Shown: one piece after another, positions 984 through 50,372 of the stretch
How the letters are laid out: each line of letters begins with the position of its first letter
How positions within the stretch are numbered: the stretch's first letter is position 1
Source: Pseudomonadota bacterium
Lineage (GTDB): Bacteria; Desulfobacterota; Desulfobulbia; Desulfobulbales; Desulfurivibrionaceae
Length of the DNA: 64,000 bases
Reading direction: 5' to 3'
Assembly: GCA_018830485.1 (NCBI GenBank)
Contig: JAHJRQ010000007.1
Coordinates: 1 to 64,000, forward strand
Notes under the pieces: generated by a model
What the model saw: only the letters and a program-made list of their open reading frames with translations
What the model was told of the DNA's origin: nothing
Database searches by the model: none
Made by a program: the position numbers and the translations under genes

Positions 984-2438
984 ATGAATCTCAAGCCTGC
1001 CCGCAGAATCGGCAACAAACTGCGCCTCTATGTCGCCTTTCTGCTCCTAGGCGCCTTATCCTCTGTAATCATTGCCGCCGCCCTGTTCTCCTTGCGCTCT
1101 CTTGCCCAAGAGGTGGCCGGGATCGCCCAAAAGGAATACCCGATCACCAAAATGGCCATCGAGATGGAGGGACTCATGGGCCAGGTAATTGAAAAGCTCA
1201 ACACTGCCAAGGCGGCGGCAAGCACCCAGCGGCTCAAGGAGATTGAGCCGCTGGACATACGCTTGCGCACTCTGCTTAACGCACTGCAAGAACTCTATGA
1301 AGCCAACCAGGATAAGGCGAATGCCGCCCTGATACAGAAACTGCTAACCACCTATACTGAAGCCAACGATGTCGGGGCCCAAATGGTGCGCGCCGCCATT
1401 GATCAGGAATTCGCCCTCGAAGGCGAGCTGACGCCGACATTTATGGCTCACACCACCTTCATCTTCTCTACCCTGGAACGAATGGTGACGGAAAGCACGG
1501 AGACGTATAACCGAAACACCCTTCACATTCTCGCCATCAGCTCCCTGATGACCAAGGCACTGCTGATTGCCTTTCTTCTCTGTTCCGTAGTCGGTGCCGC
1601 CACCTTCCTTCTGATCTCAAACATGTCCAAAAAATTGGCCGCAATGGCTACGGACTCATCCGAGGCGGTCGGCACCCTGCTTACCTCCATGGCTTATATC
1701 ACCGACATGTCCACCCAACTCAGCGTCGAAACCTCCGAATCGGCTGCCAACCTCGAACAAATAACCCTCTCCACAAAAGACGTTGCCGCCCAGGCAGGGG
1801 AGAACATGCAAATCGCCAGATCTGCTGGAAAATCTACCCAACAGGTATTGACCACGGCCAACCAGTCCGAGGAGGTGATCCGCGAGGTGGTGGAAGCCAT
1901 GTCCGGCATGGCAGACGCGGACCGGGAGATATCCTCCCTGGTCAGGGTAATCGAAGATATTGCCTTCCAAACAAATTTGCTCGCCCTCAATGCCGCCGTC
2001 GAGGCAGCGCGAGCCGGCGAGGCGGGCACCGGCTTCGCGGTGGTGGCGGAAGAAGTCCGCCGCTTGGCAACAAGGGCTTCGGAAGCATCCCAAAAAGCGG
2101 CCGAAGTTATCGGTCGCCTCGACCAAAAGATCCACGAAGGCGAGACCGTGATTTCCACCCTACAAATCACCTTCCCCGAGGTGAGTAAGGCAACGCTCAA
2201 TGTTGTCCAGCAGATTGGAAAGATTACGGAAAACTCACACAACCAAGCAGGCAATCAGGACAAGGTCAACCAAACCATTTCCGCCGTTGATGCGTCAGTT
2301 CAGTCCCTTGCCGCCATGTCGGAGGAGAGTGCCGCGACAGTCCAAGAGGTCTCCGAGCAGGTGCAGAGACTGAACACGTTGATTAACGAACTCATGATCT
2401 TCTGGGAAGGCCGTGCGGGACACTCCGCCCGTCAATAA
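984..2438 (+). CDS. Methyl-accepting chemotaxis protein
   Basis: A 484-residue chemoreceptor. ATG 984 follows an AAGG about 9 bases upstream. One membrane segment lies near residues 17-40 ([18 protein letters not shown]) and a second near 195-215 ([19 protein letters not shown]), enclosing a roughly 150-residue helical periplasmic domain. No clear HAMP domain follows the second segment. The signalling hairpin tip is canonical ([21 protein letters not shown], then [13 protein letters not shown]), so it should bind CheA/CheW. Unlike the two receptors at 16456 and 18378 it lacks the acidic-aromatic C-terminal tail and ends GHSARQ. Its end overlaps the next gene by 26 bases. Ligand unknown. Confidence 0.93.
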
Positions 2439-16455: not shown

Positions 16456-18057
16456 ATGGCCAGACAACAGGTAACATTAGGCAAGAAAATCGGCGGCGGC
16501 TTCGGGGTGGTGCTCTTCCTCCTTGCCATGGTCGCGGGCATTTACCAGTTCGCTCTCACCACCGCCACCTCCACCTTCACCGAACTCATCGAGATCGACA
16601 TGACCATAGCGGTGCGGGCAAACGCAGCCCTGAACCACCTCAACAAGTGCCGACGCTTTGAAAGGAACTTTCTCCTCGCTGGCGAAGATGATAAAGCAAA
16701 GGAGCAAAAAAACAGCTACGCCGACTTGGAAGACGAGTTGGATACCCTTGATGCCTTGGCAAAGAAAGCGAACAAACCAAATATTATCGCGGAGGTGCAA
16801 AAAATCCGCCCCTTGGCCGAAGCGTATCAAAAAAGTTTTGAAGAAGTAGCAGCAGCCCCAGAGCATGAGCGGATGAGCCTTGAACCCAACCTCCGCAAAA
16901 CAGGAAAACCAGCAGAAACTGCACTGGAAAAACTTACCATCCAGGCCAATGACGAGGCAAACCAGGGCAGAGTTGCCGCCAAGGATCGGGCCGATCTCAA
17001 GGGCATATTGGCCTTGAGCCTTGGCGCCATCGCCATTGCCATCGGCTCGGTGCTCGCCTTTTTCCTGGGCCGGGAGATTTCCGCCACCCTCAAGCAGGTC
17101 AGCACGACCTTGAACGAAGGCGCGGAGCAGGTTGCCGCAGCGGCGGGCGAGGTTTCCTCCTCCAGCCAAACCCTGGCCGAAGGCGCATCCCAGCAGGCGG
17201 CGGCAGTGGAAGAAACCTCCGCCTCCCTGGAAGAGGTCGGCGCCATGATCAAGCAGGATGCCGACAACGCCCGGCAGGCGGACGAGCTGATGAAGGAGGC
17301 GAATCAGGTTATCCAGAACGCAGATGAATCCATGAAAAAGCTCACCATCTCCATGGAGGAAATTTCCGCTGCCAGCGCCCAAACCCAAAAGATCGTCAAA
17401 ACCATCGATGAAATCGCCTTCCAGACCAATCTGCTGGCCCTGAATGCCGCGGTCGAGGCGGCTCGGGCCGGCGAGGCAGGGGCCGGATTCGCGGTGGTGG
17501 CCGACGAAGTGCGCAATCTGGCCATGCGGGCGGCGGAGGCGGCCAAAAACACCTCCAATCTCATCGAGGGAACGGTGCAGAAAATTACCGCCGGCAACGC
17601 CCTGGTCAGCGAGACCAGCGAATCGTTCTATGTTGCCGCCCAATCCACCACCCGCATCGGCACGATCATCACCGAGATGGCCGGAGCGGCAAGCCAGCAG
17701 GCAAATGCCATCAGCCAGGTCACCAAGGCCATCCACGAGATCGACACCGTGACCCAGGCAAACGCCGCGGCAGCGGAAGAATCGGCCTCAGCCTCCGAAG
17801 AGTTGAACGCCCAGGCGGAAATGATGAAAGGCTCGGTTGGGCAGTTGCTGGAAATGGTGGGCGGCGGAGAGAGTCCGGCAATAAAGCCGACGGCAGACAA
17901 AAAATTGAAGCGCCCCCCCACTCGGGCACAGTACGACGCCAAAAAAATCGCACCTCCGGCACGAAAGGCCCTGCCCCCCGCACCCAAAAGCAGCCCGGCC
18001 AAGGGGAAAAAACCCGAGGATATCATCCCCATGGGCGACGACTTTGAGGATTTTTGA
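16456..18057 (+). CDS. Methyl-accepting chemotaxis protein with acidic C-terminal tail
   Basis: A 533-residue receptor, GGAGGAG upstream. Membrane segments near 13-32 ([20 protein letters not shown]) and 180-205 ([22 protein letters not shown]) enclose a four-helix-bundle sensor domain of about 145 residues (motif [11 protein letters not shown]). The cytoplasmic part carries typical methylation helices ([15 protein letters not shown]) and the tip [21 protein letters not shown]. The linker after the tip is Lys/Pro rich and ends in [11 protein letters not shown], a tail shared in form with the receptor at 18378 and resembling tethering tails for CheR, CheB or CheD. No clear HAMP domain. Ligand unknown. 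Confidence 0.94.
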
Positions 18058-18377: not shown

Positions 18378-20108
18378 ATGGATCTCAAGCAGTGGTCGTT
18401 GCGGGGGAAAATAGTCCTGGTGGGCGTCTTGCTGCCCACTCTGCTCATCGTGGGTTTGTTCCGCCTATACTCGGGAGAATCAAGGGAAAAAACCCTCACC
18501 GCATACGCGGACAAGGCCAGAGCCATCTGCTTGACCGCCGAGTCCACCCGCGACGAAATGGAAAAAAAATGGCAGATGGGACTGTTCACTGCCGAACGCC
18601 TCCGGGAATTGGCCGAGGCGGGCGAGAAAGATAAGGTTCTGGCCATGGTCCCGGTGGTTTCCGCCTGGAATGCGGCCATGCGCAAAGCGCAGGAAGGCGG
18701 CTACACCTTCAAAGTGCCCAAACATTCCCCCAGAAATCCCAAAAACGAACCGGACCTGCTTGAAGCAAAGGCGCTCAAGCTGATGGACGAACAGAATCTT
18801 GACGAATATTACGAAATCGACCCCGCACTCAACGCTGTCCGGTATTTCCGGGCGGTCCGCCTCTCGGAAACCTGCCTGCTCTGCCACGGCGACCCGAAAA
18901 CCTCCCAAGCCCTCTGGGGCAACGACACCGGAACCGACCCCACCGGCGGCCCCATGGAAAATTGGAAAACAGGCGAAATCCACGGGGCCTTCGAAGTGAT
19001 ACAGTCCCTGGACCAGGCGGACAAGCAGTTGAACGCCTCGATCAGCAAAGCCACCTATCTGGTGGTGGTCGGCCTCGCCATCATGGCTGTGCTCTTCGCC
19101 ACTCTGGTGATCCGCATCGTTTCCAATTCGGTGATCAAGCCGGTCACCCGGATCATCGCCGACCTGACCCGGGGCGCGGATAACCTGCTTGACGCAGCCA
19201 ACCAGGTATCATCAGCCAGCCACGAACTAGCCGACGGCGCCACCCGGCAAGCCGCAAGCCTTGAGGAGACATCGGCCTCACTGGAAGAGATGTCCTCCAT
19301 GACCAAACAAAACGCCGAGAACGTGAGCCAAACCAGCCTGATGGCGGAAAATGCCAGAAGCTCGGCCGAGGTTGCCCAGCAGAGCATGGAGAAGATGACC
19401 GTGGCCATCGGCTCCATCAAAAAATCCGCGGACCAAACCGCGGTGATCATGAAAACCATCGACGAGATAGCCTTCCAGACCAACCTGCTGGCCTTGAACG
19501 CCGCCGTTGAGGCGGCGCGGGCCGGCGAGGCGGGCGCGGGTTTCGCCGTGGTGGCGGAAGAGGTTCGCTCGCTGGCCCTGCGCAGCGCAGAAGCCGCCAA
19601 GAATACAGCGCAGCTCATCGAAGAATCCCAGAAAAACGCGGACAATGGCGTCAAATCGGCGGCGGAGGTAAAAGAAATCCTGACCAAGATTGTTGACGGG
19701 GTCAAGAAGGTCAGCCAACTGGCCAGGGAGATCACCGTGGCCAGCGACGAACAGGCCCTGGGCGTCAACCAGATCAACAGCGCCGTTGCCGATGTGGACA
19801 AGGTAACCCAGGGCAACGCCGCCATTTCCGAAGAGGCTGCCTCGGCAAGCGAGGAGCTTTCCGGCCAGGCCAGGGAACTGAGCGAACTGGTCCACTCCCT
19901 GGCCGAGATCGTGGGCGCCCGAGAGACCGGCGCGGCGCCGCCCAAAAACATCGGCAGAAAAGCACCGGCACACATTCAGAAACGCGCATCCCTGGCGAGC
20001 CCGGCAAAGCCGATGAAAAAACTTGCCTCCCCTGCGGACGCACAGCCCAAGGCGGCCAAGGCGCAGGATGTCATCCCCTTTGACAACGATGAGTTTGAAA
20101 ATTTCTAG
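18378..20108 (+). CDS. Heme-binding methyl-accepting chemotaxis protein (Tll0287-like / DUF3365 sensor)
   Basis: A 576-residue receptor. Membrane segments near 10-30 ([18 protein letters not shown]) and 225-248 ([19 protein letters not shown]). The sensor domain between them is Tll0287-like and contains a c-type heme attachment site, CLLCH at 166-170, preceded by [11 protein letters not shown] and followed by GDPKTS. It should therefore sense redox state, oxygen or NO through a periplasmic heme. The cytoplasmic part has a weak HAMP-like piece ([14 protein letters not shown]), methylation helices and the tip [21 protein letters not shown]. The C-terminus [12 protein letters not shown] parallels the receptor at 16456. 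Bacteriohemerythrin follows 23 bases later. Confidence 0.94.
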
Positions 20109-29615: not shown

Positions 29616-29721
29616 GTAAACGTTCAGCAGTGCCGCAGATGCGCGGAAGAGGTCTGCGAAGTGTGCTATTGCACATGAGCAGGCCGATGACAAAGCAAAT
29701 GCGGTGCTGCTGGACGTTTAC
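29616..29721 (-). repeat. attC-like structured repeat, copy 1
   Basis: A 106-bp element immediately 3' of the efp stop codon. Its ends are inverted repeats, GTAAACGTTCAGCAG (29616-29630) against CTGCTGGACGTTTAC (29707-29721), 14 of 15 complementary. The middle contains a hairpin TGTGC-TATT-GCACA within a CTGC/GCAG stem. The internal 80 bases are nearly identical to copy 2 (30397-30500) but the end sequences differ. This resembles integron attC architecture; no integrase is visible. Confidence 0.85.
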
Positions 29722-29723
29722 GG

Positions 29724-30287
29724 CTATTCCTTTACCCGGGTCACATACACCCCGGTGCGGGTGTCGATCTGCAGCTTATCCCCTTCCTCGATAAAGGGCG
29801 GCACCTGGACCACATACCCGGTTTCCAGGGTTACGGGCTTGGAGTCGCTGCCGCTGGTGTCGCCCTTGACCCACGGGTCGGACTGGGTGACCTTGAGGTT
29901 GACGAAGTTGGGCAGGGTAACGCCGATGGGGCGGCCGTTGTACTGCAGCACCTCCACATCCATGTTGTCGGTGAGAAAATTGATGGCATCGCCCAACTGT
30001 TCTTTGGATATCTCCAATTGCTCAAAGGAGACGTTGTCCATGAAGATGTACTCATCCCCCTGGCAGTAGAGATACTGCATGGTCCGCTCCTCAAGGGCGG
30101 CCTTTTCCAATTTGTCGTTGGAGCGGAAGGTCTTTTCAAAGGAATTACCGGTGATCATGTTCCGCAAACGGGCGCGGTACAGGGCCTGGCCCTTGCCGGG
30201 TTTGGAAAAGGAAAAATCCGTCATGACATACGGTTCGCCGTCGATCTGAACCTTTAAGCCTTTGCGAAAATCAGAAGCGGAATACAT
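29724..30287 (-). CDS. efp: Elongation factor P
   Basis: A 187-residue translation factor that relieves ribosome stalling at polyproline. Three beta-barrel domains; the modified loop is KPGKG with Lys32 as the lysylation site, flanked by DFSFS and GQALYRARLRN. C-terminal signature GDKLQIDTRTGVYVTRV is standard. GGGAGAG precedes the start. EpmA is encoded downstream. Each of efp and the MoaE-like gene upstream is followed directly by an attC-like repeat. Confidence 0.97.
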   Translation of the reverse strand: MYSASDFRKGLKVQIDGEPYVMTDFSFSKPGKGQALYRARLRNMITGNSFEKTFRSNDKLEKAALEERTMQYLYCQGDEYIFMDNVSFEQLEISKEQLGDAINFLTDNMDVEVLQYNGRPIGVTLPNFVNLKVTQSDPWVKGDTSGSDSKPVTLETGYVVQVPPFIEEGDKLQIDTRTGVYVTRVKE

Positions 30288-30396: not shown

Positions 30397-30500
30397 TAAC
30401 TGCTCAGCAGTGCCGCAGATGCGCGGAAGAGACCTGCAAAATGTGCTATTGCACATGAGCAGGCCGATGACAAAGCAGATGTGGTGCTGCTGGGCAGTTA
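30397..30500 (-). repeat. attC-like structured repeat, copy 2
   Basis: A 104-bp element whose edge includes the stop codon of the MoaE-like gene. Ends TAACTGCTCAGCAG (30397-30410) and CTGCTGGGCAGTTA (30487-30500) are 13 of 14 complementary. Inner hairpin ATGTGC-TATT-GCACAT sits in a CCTGC/GCAGG stem. The interior matches copy 1 closely; the outer arms do not match copy 1 but remain self-complementary, so pairing rather than sequence seems to be conserved. Confidence 0.85.
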
Positions 30501-30857
30501 CATTACTTCCTTTTTACCGATGGCCTCTGCCTTAATGCGATCCAGGAGCTCGCCCAGCACCGGTTTCACATTCTCCCGGATATCACCGGCCACGATGATG
30601 AACAGCAGATCGTCGCCGGGCTGGAAGGAGCCGCTCTTGGCCTCGATGACGATGTCGAAGATGCCGGGCTTTTGCAGAAACTCCTTCCGGATCGCCTCGA
30701 CCTTTGCCTGATCCGGGGTGACCTCAAGGGCGGTGACCCCTTCCCTGGTCTTGCGCGACCAGGCCCGGACCACGCCGTTGTGCACAAGGACCATCCCGAC
30801 GTTCTCGGCAAAGGCGGGGTTCTTTTTCATCTCGGCAATCGTTTTTGAAATATCCAT
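30498..30857 (-). CDS. MoaE-like protein
   Basis: A 119-residue protein with GAGGTGA before the ATG. The segment GMVLVHNGVVRAWSR followed by a helix and GSFQPGDDLLFIIVAGDIRENV resembles the fold of the molybdopterin synthase large subunit MoaE (GTVR, then GxLxxGexxv). The catalytic lysine and the usual His-Arg segment of true MoaE are not obvious, so it may be a paralogue with another role. Neighbours (pepN, efp) give no molybdenum link. Confidence 0.6.
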   Translation of the reverse strand: MDISKTIAEMKKNPAFAENVGMVLVHNGVVRAWSRKTREGVTALEVTPDQAKVEAIRKEFLQKPGIFDIVIEAKSGSFQPGDDLLFIIVAGDIRENVKPVLGELLDRIKAEAIGKKEVM

Positions 30858-35583: not shown

Positions 35584-35716
35584 GATTTTCTTTATTGACT
35601 CGGTATTCACAACGGATAAGGAGCCCAGTATACTCGCTCCTGCCGGGATTTGCCGCTAAAATCAGGTTCAGCCGGGAATTCCAGGCAATGGGAAAGAACC
35701 TTTCCACGGGTCTCTT

Positions 35717-36096
35717 TTTCTTCTTTTGCGTGCCCAAAAGAAGAAACAAGAAAAAGGCACCCCAGCCAGTCCTGGCCCTGCGGGCTCCCCTTGCTTCTCG
35801 ACGAGGGCGGGACGCTAAAAAACTCGGGCTTCGCCCTCAAACAGTTTTAGCGTCTTTTCCCGCCCCCGTCTGCGAGGCGCGGCAGGACAAATGGGAGGGG
35901 AGAGAAAAAATCCCATTGGCACGCCGCCGAGCACCGGAGAGGCTGCCGAAAAAGGGCTTTGCACTGTTTGAGGCGCAGCCGAGTTTGCAAAGCCCCGGCA
36001 GCATCGAGGAGCACAGAAAATCCCGCCTACGGCGGGACCAGTGACACGGGTGCCCTTTCTTTGGTTCGTTTCTTTGGGCAAACAAAGAAATGAACA
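35717..36096 (-). repeat. 380-bp dispersed structured element, copy A
   Basis: A full-length copy with imperfect terminal inverted repeats (left around GCGTGCCCAAA...GGCACCC, right around GGGTGCC...TTTGGGCAAAC). Internal helices: GACGCTAAAA/TTTTAGCGTC (35811-35820, 35845-35854) enclosing GGGC-TTC-GCCC; ATGGGA/TCCCAT (35891, 35911); GCTGCCG/CGGCAGC around GGGCTTTGCA/TGCAAAGCCC (35954-35963, 35986-35995); TCCCGCC-TAC-GGCGGGA (36021-36037). It begins 47 bases after the stop of the minus-strand M32 gene. Short reading frames inside it are not believed. Confidence 0.9.
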
Positions 36097-36143
36097 AATT
36101 AATTTCATCCGAAACAGACAGCCGTTTAACTCAACTCCACGAA

Positions 36144-37625
36144 TCACCCGGCAAGCATGCTAAACTTCTCCTCCAGATAGGCAAGAAAAGGCCGCACGGA
36201 GAGCGGCGCGCCCGTTACCCGCATCAGCAGCTCCTCGGGCAGATACACGCTGCCGTGGCTGTGGATCTCCCGGACCAGCCACTCCCTGACCTTTGCCAGA
36301 TCCCCCTCGGCCAGGGTCAGACCGAACCCGGGGTCATGCCGTTTATAGGCCTCCCAAATCTGGGCTGCGGCCAGATTGCCGATGGTGTAGGTGGGGAAAT
36401 AGCCGAAGCTGCCGTGGGCCCAATGGATGTCCTGCAAGACCCCGTCGGCGTCGGATTCGACCTCCACCCCGAGGTATTGCCGGTATTTGTCCCGCCAGAC
36501 CCGGGGCAACGAGGCAACCTCCAGGCTCCCCTCGATCAGCCCCTTTTCAATCTCGAACCGGATCAGGACATGGAGGTTGTAGGTCAACTCGTCGGCATCC
36601 ACCCGGATCAACCCCGGAATCACCGCGTTTATGCCCCGGACAAAATCATCGAGCCCAAGGTGGGCAAACTGGGCCGGAAACGCCTGTTGCAGCTCCGGAA
36701 AAAATCGCTGCCAAAATGGCAGCCCGCGGCCCACGACATTCTCCCAGAAACGGGACTGCGACTCGTGGATGCCTAAGGAAACCCCGTCATCAAGATGACT
36801 GTGGGCCAGACGCTCGTCAATGCCCTGCTCGTACAGGGCGTGCCCGCCCTCGTGCAAGGCGCCGAAGATGAAGTCCAGGCTCTTGGGGGCGTACCGGTTG
36901 GTGATGCGCCGGTCGTGGTGTCCCAGGGTGGTGGTGAAGGGATGGGGTGAACGGGCCAGGCAGCCCCGGGAAAAATCAAAGCCCATGGCCACCAGAAGGT
37001 GCTCGGCAAAATGCTCCTGACCGGAGAGGGAAAAAGGCTCGTTGAAGACCAAAGGGGGAAGGCGGCCGGCGAATCTTTTGACCATGGCAACCAGGGGCGC
37101 TTGCAGCTCGCCGAACATCCCTTCCACCCGGGCGGTGGTAAGCCCTTCCTCGTACAGATCGAGCAGCGCGTCATAGGGATGGGCCGCATAGCCGAGGTAT
37201 TCGGCCTGTTGCCGGACCATGGCCACCAGCCGTTCCAGCAGGGGTTGAAAAATGGCGAAATCGGATTGCTCCCGCGCTTCAAGCCAGGCCATCTGGGCCT
37301 GGGAGGCAAGGCGGGAAAACTCGGCGACAAACTCCTCGGGCAGTTTGGTATTCTGGTCGTAGCTCCGCCGCATGACCCGCAGCAGGGCGCAGTCCTCCAC
37401 GGAAAGCGCTTCTGTGCGCGCCTCGGCCTCAGCCAGCAGGGCGCCAAGCTCCGGGGAGACCTCCCGCCGATGCACCAAAGCGCTCAGGGTGGCAAACTGC
37501 CCGGCCCGCCCTTCCGCTGCCCGGCGGGGCATGCGCACCTCCTGGTCCCACTGCATGAGGGCCAGGGTATGGTGCAGGTCAACCAGTTCGGCGGAATATT
37601 TTTTCAATTGTGCGAGCATGTTCAT
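36144..37625 (-). CDS. M32-family metallocarboxypeptidase (carboxypeptidase Taq)
   Basis: A 493-residue enzyme releasing C-terminal residues from peptides. Zinc motif HEGGH in FGALHEGGHALYEQG, then GIHESQSRFWENVVGR with the third-ligand Glu, and DELTYNLHVLIRFEIE, all typical of M32. GAGGGAG lies before ATG 37625. Length is standard for the family. Probably cytoplasmic. The TauE-like gene lies 37 bases upstream in the same direction. Confidence 0.95.
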   Translation of the reverse strand: MNMLAQLKKYSAELVDLHHTLALMQWDQEVRMPRRAAEGRAGQFATLSALVHRREVSPELGALLAEAEARTEALSVEDCALLRVMRRSYDQNTKLPEEFVAEFSRLASQAQMAWLEAREQSDFAIFQPLLERLVAMVRQQAEYLGYAAHPYDALLDLYEEGLTTARVEGMFGELQAPLVAMVKRFAGRLPPLVFNEPFSLSGQEHFAEHLLVAMGFDFSRGCLARSPHPFTTTLGHHDRRITNRYAPKSLDFIFGALHEGGHALYEQGIDERLAHSHLDDGVSLGIHESQSRFWENVVGRGLPFWQRFFPELQQAFPAQFAHLGLDDFVRGINAVIPGLIRVDADELTYNLHVLIRFEIEKGLIEGSLEVASLPRVWRDKYRQYLGVEVESDADGVLQDIHWAHGSFGYFPTYTIGNLAAAQIWEAYKRHDPGFGLTLAEGDLAKVREWLVREIHSHGSVYLPEELLMRVTGAPLSVRPFLAYLEEKFSMLAG

Positions 37626-37662
37626 TAAGCAACTCCCTCTGTATTTGCCGCAGGAATCCCGG

Positions 37663-38409
37663 CTACCCCTTCAACGCTTTAAGCAACAGGGCAATGCCGC
37701 TGCCCAGCAGAATCATGCTCACCAGCCGGACAAAGGCGGCATGGCTGATCCGCAGATGCACCTTGCCGCCAAGCCAGAGGGCCAGGGCGCCGAGAGGCAC
37801 AATTCCCGCGCAGAGCGCCAGGGTCCGCAGGGTATAAAAACCGCTCAGGGAGAACCCCACGATGCGGCACAGCCCGTCGATCACGAATACCGTGGCGATG
37901 GTGGTGCGAAATTCTGTTTTATCGAGCTGCCGCAGGGTCAGATAGATCACATAAAACGGACCCCCGGTGCCGAACAACGCCCCCACCATGCCCCCCAGCA
38001 AACCGGCTGGCCCGGCCAGCCAGCGTTCTCCGTTCAGGGGCGGAAACGGCAGCAGGGCATAGACAGCATAGAGCATGATGAAAATGGCGAGTGCGAACAG
38101 CAGACTGGTTGGCGCCAAAACGGTATGCAGGTAGAGGCCGGTGGCAACGCCCAGCACGGTGAAAGGCAAAAGCGGCAGCAGATCGGACCAGCGGATGAGC
38201 CGCCGGTTGGGCAGCCCCTGGCTGACCGAAGCCAGCCAGTCCAAGAGTCCGATCAGGGGCACCACCTGGGAAACAGGGAAATAAAGAGCCAGCAACGGCA
38301 CGGAGATCAACGCCGAACCGAAGCCGGCGATGCCGCGGATGAAATAGGCGAAAAACAACACGCCTGCGGCAAAAAGGATCTCGGGCTGCACCATCGGAAT
38401 ATCAATCAT
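37663..38409 (-). CDS. TauE/SafE-family sulfite or sulfonate exporter
   Basis: A 248-residue membrane protein with about eight hydrophobic segments and the family's repeated Gly-rich helices (FIRGIAGFGSALISVPLLALYFP near the start; GLLGGMVGALFGTGGPFYVIYL in the middle). TauE/SafE proteins export sulfite, sulfoacetate or similar anions. The small sulfite reductase at 38902 lies upstream in the same direction, separated by a 373-bp repeat, which supports a sulfite-related role by context. Confidence 0.87.
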   Translation of the reverse strand: MIDIPMVQPEILFAAGVLFFAYFIRGIAGFGSALISVPLLALYFPVSQVVPLIGLLDWLASVSQGLPNRRLIRWSDLLPLLPFTVLGVATGLYLHTVLAPTSLLFALAIFIMLYAVYALLPFPPLNGERWLAGPAGLLGGMVGALFGTGGPFYVIYLTLRQLDKTEFRTTIATVFVIDGLCRIVGFSLSGFYTLRTLALCAGIVPLGALALWLGGKVHLRISHAAFVRLVSMILLGSGIALLLKALKG

Positions 38410-38503
38410 GCCGGGTCAATCCCCCTTTTGTGGCCGCGTAAAGATTTGGTTCATGCAAGAATCCCGGAGAAGACCAGCAATATATCCCTGCCTGCTGTTT
38501 TTC

Positions 38504-38876
38504 TTTCTTCTTTTGCGTGCCCAAAAGAAGAAACAAGAAAAAGGCACCCCAGCCAGTCCTGGCCCTTCGGGCTTCCCTTACTTCTCGCCGAGGGCGGGAC
38601 GCGGAAAAACTCGGGCTTCGCCCTCAGACAGTTCCCGCGTCTTTTCCCGCCCCCGTCTGCGAGGCGCGGCAGGACAAATGGGGGAGGACTTCCCATTGGC
38701 CCGCAGCCGAGCACCGGAGAGGCTGCCGAAAAGGGATTTGCACTGTTTGAGGCGCAGCCGAGTTTGCAAATCCCCGGCAGCATCGAGGAGCACAGGGCAT
38801 CCCGCCAACGGCGGGACAAGGGACACAGGGGGCCCTTTCTTTGGTTCGTTTCTTTGGGCAAGCAAAAAAATGAACA
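38504..38876 (-). repeat. 373-bp dispersed structured element, copy B
   Basis: Second full-length copy, colinear with copy A. The first internal helix is GACGCGG/CCGCGTC (38598-38604, 38635-38641) where copy A has GACGCTA/TAGCGTC, and the apical helix is GGGATTTGCA/TGCAAATCCC (38733-38742, 38765-38774) where copy A has GGGCTTTGCA/TGCAAAGCCC: paired changes on both strands. TCCCGCC-AAC-GGCGGGA is kept with a different loop base. Begins 25 bases after the sulfite reductase stop. Confidence 0.9.
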
Positions 38877-38901
38877 AAAAAAACTTCCAATAGCTACAAC
38901 T

Positions 38902-50164: not shown

Positions 50165-50189
50165 TCAGTTTGAGGTTGCCCTGCTGTCT

Positions 50190-50372
50190 CCCATTGGCAC
50201 GCAGCCGAGCACCGGAGAGGCTGCCGAAAAAGGGATTTGCACTGTTTGAGCGAAGCGAGTTTGCAAAGCCCCGGCAGCATCGAGGAGCGCAGGGCATCCC
50301 GCCAGCGGCGGGACAAGTGACACGGGTGCCTTTTCTTTGGTTCGTTTCTTTGGGCAAGCAAAGAAATGAACA
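50190..50372 (-). repeat. Partial copy C of the dispersed structured element
   Basis: Matches the right half of copies A and B, starting at the CCCATTGGCA arm and ending in TTTGGGCAAGCAAAG. It keeps the GCTGCCG/CGGCAGC stem and TCCCGCC-AGC-GGCGGGA hairpin. The apical helix is GGGATTTGCA/TGCAAAGCCC (50232-50241, 50262-50271), which leaves one A-G mismatch, and the apical loop is re-formed as GCGAAGC. Begins 19 bases after the stop of the minus-strand methyltransferase; the left half is missing. Confidence 0.88.

What the first reader, a model, noticed from the sequence alone, without database searches (positions are those of the whole stretch)
35717..38876. Dispersed ~380-bp element whose helices are preserved by compensatory base changes
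Copies A (35717-36096) and B (38504-38876) are colinear. At the first internal helix A has GACGCTA/TAGCGTC and B has GACGCGG/CCGCGTC; at the apical helix A has GGGCTTTGCA/TGCAAAGCCC and B has GGGATTTGCA/TGCAAATCCC. Both arms change together. Three further helices (ATGGG/CCCAT, GCTGCCG/CGGCAGC, TCCCGCC/GGCGGGA) are kept while loops vary in length or sequence. This argues for selection on a folded nucleic acid, either a structured RNA or a single-stranded DNA mobile unit, rather than on any encoded peptide.
Basis: seen in the sequence. Interest (0 to 1): 0.82.

Follow-up and report, generated by a model that had tools for sequence, protein, structure and literature searches.

The report
Mobile element with triple-helix pseudoknot ends
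A short non-coding sequence scattered through these bacterial genomes is two back-to-back folded modules, each ending in a knot that probably wraps into a triple helix; the same ending recurs in several bacterial phyla, which points to an undescribed class of mobile structured RNA (or single-stranded DNA).

Summary
The window has three copies, G000 about twenty, and all 17 genomes of the genus carry it; orthologous empty sites show past mobility. Compensatory pairs are real in the larger sample. But the unit is not one 380-nt fold: it is two diverged, inverted ~190-nt modules (L, sense on minus; R, sense on plus) that also occur singly, usually inside short outer inverted repeats. Each module ends 3' in a hairpin preceded by a pyrimidine tract. 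Across Pseudomonadota, Bacillota, Bacteroidota, Desulfobacterota and others the hairpin loop covaries with bases upstream of the tract (27 of 42 distinct combinations pair over 4 bp or more; best of 5,000 shuffles 11): an H-type pseudoknot. The tract is the parallel Hoogsteen match of the stem's purine strand (asymmetric cases: mirror 18, direct repeat 0), so a pyrimidine triple helix is predicted. A model of the window's R module, pseudoknot removed, finds gammaproteobacterial modules directly followed by this pseudoknot. Rfam's TwoAYGGAY RNA, of unknown function, abuts the same pseudoknot; the window element itself is not TwoAYGGAY. RNA is my preferred level of action, single-stranded DNA the rival; neither was tested.

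The parts
35665..35688 (+). left outer terminal inverted repeat (type I, GGTTCAGCCGGGAATTCCAGGCAA) of copy A
   Evidence: pattern search with 3 mismatches; the orthologous site lacks it in relatives
35717..35746 (-). copy A, L module: pseudoknot stem S2 with its loop
35747..35763 (-). copy A, L module: tract L1 (TTTTTCTTG on the minus strand, parallel-Hoogsteen match of AAAAGAA) and S1 strand GGTGCC
   Evidence: sequence; mirror test
   Evidence: covariation in 55 copies; fold
   Evidence: model R1
36051..36095 (+). copy A, R pseudoknot: S1a TGCC 36051-36054, L1 36055-36063, S2a 36064-36076, S1b GGCA 36077-36080, S2b 36083-36095
   Evidence: cross-phylum covariation
38504..38876 (.). copy B, full element: L module on minus (hairpin 38504-38533), R module on plus (pseudoknot 38831-38875; its S2 has lost one C-G pair)
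50189..50372 (+). third copy, R module only (pseudoknot 50327-50371)

Best explanation
It is a non-coding, formerly or still mobile element made of two structured modules head to head, with 5' ends at the centre and 3' ends outward. Shown: copies scatter, sites are empty in relatives, modules occur alone or paired, stems covary, and each module ends in a conserved 3' unit. Inferred from covariation: that unit is an H-type pseudoknot, S1a-L1-S2a-S1b-S2b, with L1 lying in the deep groove of S2 as a pyrimidine (U.A-U and C+.G-C) triple helix. Inferred and unproven: the working form is RNA, made when a neighbouring or outside promoter reads through the module, and the triplex pseudoknot caps or protects its 3' end, so that transcripts arriving from either side meet a correctly oriented 3' unit. 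The outer inverted repeats (type I or II) are the parts used for insertion, by an enzyme not found here.
For: Copies and empty sites. Type I and II repeats occur around these cores and their decayed remnants. Covarying stems. S1/loop covariation. Hoogsteen (mirror) relation of L1 to the purine strand, mirror 18, direct 0. Strand bias: in S2, 26 G.T against no A.C cells at the inner pair; in the L module 42 cells are G.T on its sense strand against 10 A.C (one column gives 24). Same module body in Gammaproteobacteria, 18 of 24 hits followed directly by the pseudoknot. A predicted RNA family, TwoAYGGAY, abuts the pseudoknot. Pattern left free in S1, L1 and S2: no reversed-control hit in 395 genomes.
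Against: No transcript evidence was available. G.T tolerance and pyrimidine triplexes also suit DNA. Orientation to the upstream gene is not significantly biased (14:6 sites in the genus, 41:31 elsewhere), so a 3'-UTR role is not favoured. The triple helix rests on sequence logic, not on a structure. In R stems other than S2 the G.T/A.C bias is not seen.
Confidence: 0.55

Rival explanations
1. The folded form is single-stranded DNA: the 3' pseudoknots at both ends are recognition structures for an enzyme that moves the element during replication or transfer, in the way folded ends work in IS200/IS605 or attC sites.
For: Dispersal and empty sites; pseudoknots sit at the outward ends of both strands in two-headed elements of several phyla; both strands carry the structure; apical loops of the GNA type, which established work describes as very stable in DNA.
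Against: No Y1 transposase gene is consistently next to copies; the one RAYT neighbour has its own GTAG repeats. In the genus the outer inverted repeats, not the pseudoknots, mark the ends, and those repeats differ between taxa while the pseudoknot is conserved.
Confidence: 0.3
2. An ordinary MITE moved by a DDE transposase through its double-stranded terminal repeats; structure and covariation are by-products of palindrome correction (template switching), without selection on a fold.
For: Outer repeats, empty sites and duplication-like T-tracts of about 7-8 bp; multi-base changes on both arms, as template switching would give.
Against: S1 pairing is interleaved with S2, which hairpin correction does not create; the Hoogsteen (mirror) match is not a hairpin product; conservation spans phyla with different outer repeats.
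Confidence: 0.08
3. The conserved end acts as double-stranded DNA, for instance as a protein-binding site or H-DNA forming mirror repeat.
For: L1 and the S2 5' arm form a pyrimidine mirror repeat.
Against: H-DNA does not call for S1/loop covariation or for a 3' purine arm pairing with the second tract; the G.T bias is strand-specific.
Confidence: 0.05

Closest known systems
TwoAYGGAY RNA (Rfam RF01731; Weinberg et al. 2010, PMC2864571)
   Same: Long outer stem with variable internal hairpins; in Halothiobacillus and Chromatiales loci the Rfam match is directly followed by the same pseudoknot; some elements are two-headed.
   Different: The window element and its relatives do not match the model; it has one long hairpin without AYGGAY loops; the Rfam model stops before the pseudoknot.
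Telomerase RNA pseudoknot (K. lactis type; from general knowledge)
   Same: H-type pseudoknot with loop 1 pyrimidines predicted to form U.A-U and C+.G-C triples in the deep groove of stem 2.
   Different: Different stems, host and setting; no homology claimed; triplex not proven here.
MITEs and REPIN/BIME repeats (e.g. PMC3116915, PMC3733652)
   Same: Short, non-coding, dispersed, intergenic, with inverted repeats.
   Different: No GTAG or CGTC tagged REP hairpin, no linked RAYT, much larger and structurally complex interior, cross-phylum conserved 3' unit.
STAXI motif (PMC2864571)
   Same: Pseudoknot-based motif with an open RNA versus single-stranded DNA question.
   Different: Tandem repeats near DNA-processing genes; no sequence relation seen.

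Membership tests
TwoAYGGAY RNA (RF01731) | covariance model score of at least 43 bits | tested here: not met
   no match in the window, none at E up to 10 on copy A, none in G000 and 37 relatives (where nothing rang in the control genomes either; the model does ring in L251 and L280)
TwoAYGGAY RNA (RF01731) | two hairpins with AYGGAY loops | tested here: not met
   R module alignment shows one long hairpin with a GNA apical loop
Superfamily defined here by the 3' pseudoknot | S1/L1/S2 arrangement directly 3' of the module | tested here: met
   window coordinates 36051-36095 and 35717-35763
MITE | terminal inverted repeats | tested here: met
   type I and II repeats
MITE | target-site duplication | tested here: inconclusive
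   about 7-8 extra T-rich bases at some filled sites, none at others
MITE | autonomous partner with the same ends | tested here: inconclusive
   no transposon with these ends found in 17 genomes, 3 mismatches allowed; several are incomplete assemblies
REPIN/BIME | GTAG- or CGTC-tagged REP pair with linked RAYT gene | tested here: not met
   sequence of the ends; Y1 genes not linked
STAXI motif | tandem copies near single-strand-binding or topoisomerase genes | tested here: not met
   Rfam scan at gathering score negative; copies dispersed, not in tandem

The most novel reading that the evidence does not exclude
A pan-bacterial class of mobile structured RNAs, including the orphan TwoAYGGAY RNA, defined by a 3' terminal triple-helix pseudoknot and often arranged as two-headed elements, with the pseudoknot serving as a transcript cap or as the handle for RNA-based mobility.
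Probability: 0.35. Interest if true: 0.92.

Novelty: new variant of a known kind. Interest (0 to 1): 0.78.

Why it matters
It links an orphan candidate RNA (TwoAYGGAY) to a dispersed element and supplies a conserved, testable 3' structure that the Rfam model leaves out. If the fold is real, bacteria of several phyla carry many copies of a telomerase-like triplex pseudoknot, and single-base swaps in S1 or L1 would show directly what it does.

Tried and rejected
Text searches for the conserved letters in papers found nothing relevant. Pfam on the long ORFs across the copies gave nothing credible. Y1 transposases as movers: present in most genus genomes but not next to copies, and a RAYT search in the 118 cross-phylum loci gave no hit (no positive control was run). 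Autonomous transposon by terminal-repeat pattern: none found. Bordetella BRE considered and set aside: a ~90-bp tandem-capable repeat with 69% G+C. Orientation bias as 3'-UTR evidence: not significant. Phages: no match; plasmids: only the hairpin, in Ilyobacter, Pseudoalteromonas and Caballeronia. RNAalifold on one strand was not used for the G.T/A.C comparison because it chooses pairs that suit that strand.

Full report
Observation. Copies A (35717-36096) and B (38504-38876) are real and about 91% identical; a third copy, R module only, is at 50189-50372. G000 (2.89 Mb) has 25 BLAST places; all 17 genomes of the genus and 3 of 6 genera of the family match. The quoted arms are right, and in 55 full copies the quoted helices show two or three Watson-Crick types per column with few mismatches; in 22 R modules five pairs have changes on both sides.

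Anatomy. The 380-bp core is two diverged inverted modules: R matches the reverse strand of L at about 72% over query 9-129. Both begin CCCATT.G at the centre and end in an outward hairpin. Full, R-only and L-only copies all occur. Outside the core lie terminal inverted repeats, type I (GGTTCATCCGGGAATTCCGGGGAA) mostly on full elements, type II (CTGATTACCAAGCAATCTCAGC) mostly on R-only ones. Pattern searches for both ends in 17 genomes return these elements or decayed remnants and no autonomous transposon.

Mobility. At site A relatives are empty (G015, G010, G012, G006, G016, G002), filled (G000, G001, G013) or hold L only (G004); at site B the genomes show a full copy, a full copy in reverse orientation (G002), R only, or nothing. 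Of seven further sites tested, six have spanning empty alleles in the fetched loci. Several type I copies sit in the T-tract after a terminator hairpin, with about 7-8 extra T-rich bases at some filled sites, compatible with a duplication but not proof.

The 3' unit. Bases upstream of the pyrimidine tract covary with the loop: TGCC/GGCA, TGTC/GACA, CGTG/CACG, GGGCC/GGCCC, CGACC/GGTCG, CGGCC/GGCCG, also TGGA/TCCA and GGCGGA/TCCGCC. Over 42 distinct combinations from 33 genomes, 27 pair over 4 bp or more; 5,000 shuffles average 3.7 with a maximum of 11. The shuffles do not model relatedness, but combinations were counted once and the variants come from distant phyla and also differ within single genomes.

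Triple helix. Where the purine strand is asymmetric and S1 pairs over 4 bp or more, the tract matches it as a parallel third strand: TTCTTTT with AAGAAAA, TTTTCTT with AAAAGAA (the genus's own L modules), CTTCTTT with GAAGAAA. The count is mirror 18, both 1, neither 3, direct repeat 0. Many of the mirror cases are L modules of one genus, so independent origins are fewer, about five variants. In an H-type pseudoknot loop 1 runs along the deep groove of stem 2 in just this direction, as in telomerase RNA (established knowledge; K. lactis telomerase has U.A-U and C+.G-C triples). The triplex is therefore a prediction.

Which strand. S2 accepts G.T in 26 cells and A.C in none at its inner pair, on the strand that holds the tract. 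In the L half the cells A.C on plus, which are G.T on minus, are 42 against 10, one column giving 24. L is thus read on minus and R on plus. Other R stems show no such bias.

Relatives. A covariance model of 22 R modules with the pseudoknot left out matched loci of Stenotrophobium, Thioalkalivibrio, Marinobacterium and other Gammaproteobacteria, best E about 1e-4 (rough calibration); 18 of 24 examined matches are followed directly by the pseudoknot. The loci had been chosen for the hairpin, so adjacency, not occurrence, is the evidence. Shared core: GCCGAGCA.CG.AG on the 5' side and CGAG.AGC.CAGGG on the 3' side. Rfam TwoAYGGAY abuts the same pseudoknot in L251 and L280. Its function is unknown; CsrA binding has been suggested (PMC4333381). 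The window element is not TwoAYGGAY. Two-headed elements of about 400-730 bp occur in Bacillota, Beta- and Gammaproteobacteria. In a Bacteroidota genome single modules have their own closing stem with compensatory changes (CCACGCCC/GGGCGTGG, CCACGTCC/GGACGTGG, CCACGCGT/ACGCGTGG). Distribution is patchy: 7 of 395 genomes of the phylum, reversed-pattern control 0.

Mechanism. Shown: dispersal, two modules, fold-level covariation. Inferred: pseudoknot and triplex. Open: RNA or single-stranded DNA. I prefer RNA (0.55) because of the complex conserved internal loops, the G.T tolerance and the link to a predicted RNA; orientation to neighbouring genes gives no significant support, and no transcript data were at hand.

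Novelty. Parts are known kinds (orphan structured RNA, MITE-like repeat). The 3' triplex pseudoknot, the two-headed layout and the link between them were not found in Rfam or in the text searches made; subscription literature was not searchable.

Noticed in passing
L003, L044, L093, L035, L109, L106, L189, L007 (element copies): A 20-25 nt mini-hairpin (like TACCCCATGCGGGGCATAAACTCC) is inserted at different loops and junctions of different copies, including a pseudoknot loop; looks like a micro-element that targets hairpin loops.
   Followed up: partly
L070 versus L062 and the window (site B); L134 versus L196: At the same intergenic site the element lies in opposite orientations in different species: in-place inversion or repeated insertion.
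   Followed up: partly
L038:906-1480: A RAYT-like transposase gene flanked by its own GTAG-type repeats stands directly beside a full element.
   Followed up: partly
window 38408-38893 (+) and 38451-38861 (-): Long ORFs run through copy B; annotation could list them as hypothetical proteins, but they match no family.
   Followed up: partly
window 1925-2113, 17379-17567, 19433-19621 and 29617-29733, 30397-30513: Other direct repeats, 68-85% identical, probably paralogous coding stretches.
   Followed up: no
L395, L396, L400 (Bacteroidota genome G057): Another short repeat, GCCGTCGGCAGACAAGCGCCGCAGGC, often follows the pseudoknot directly.
   Followed up: no
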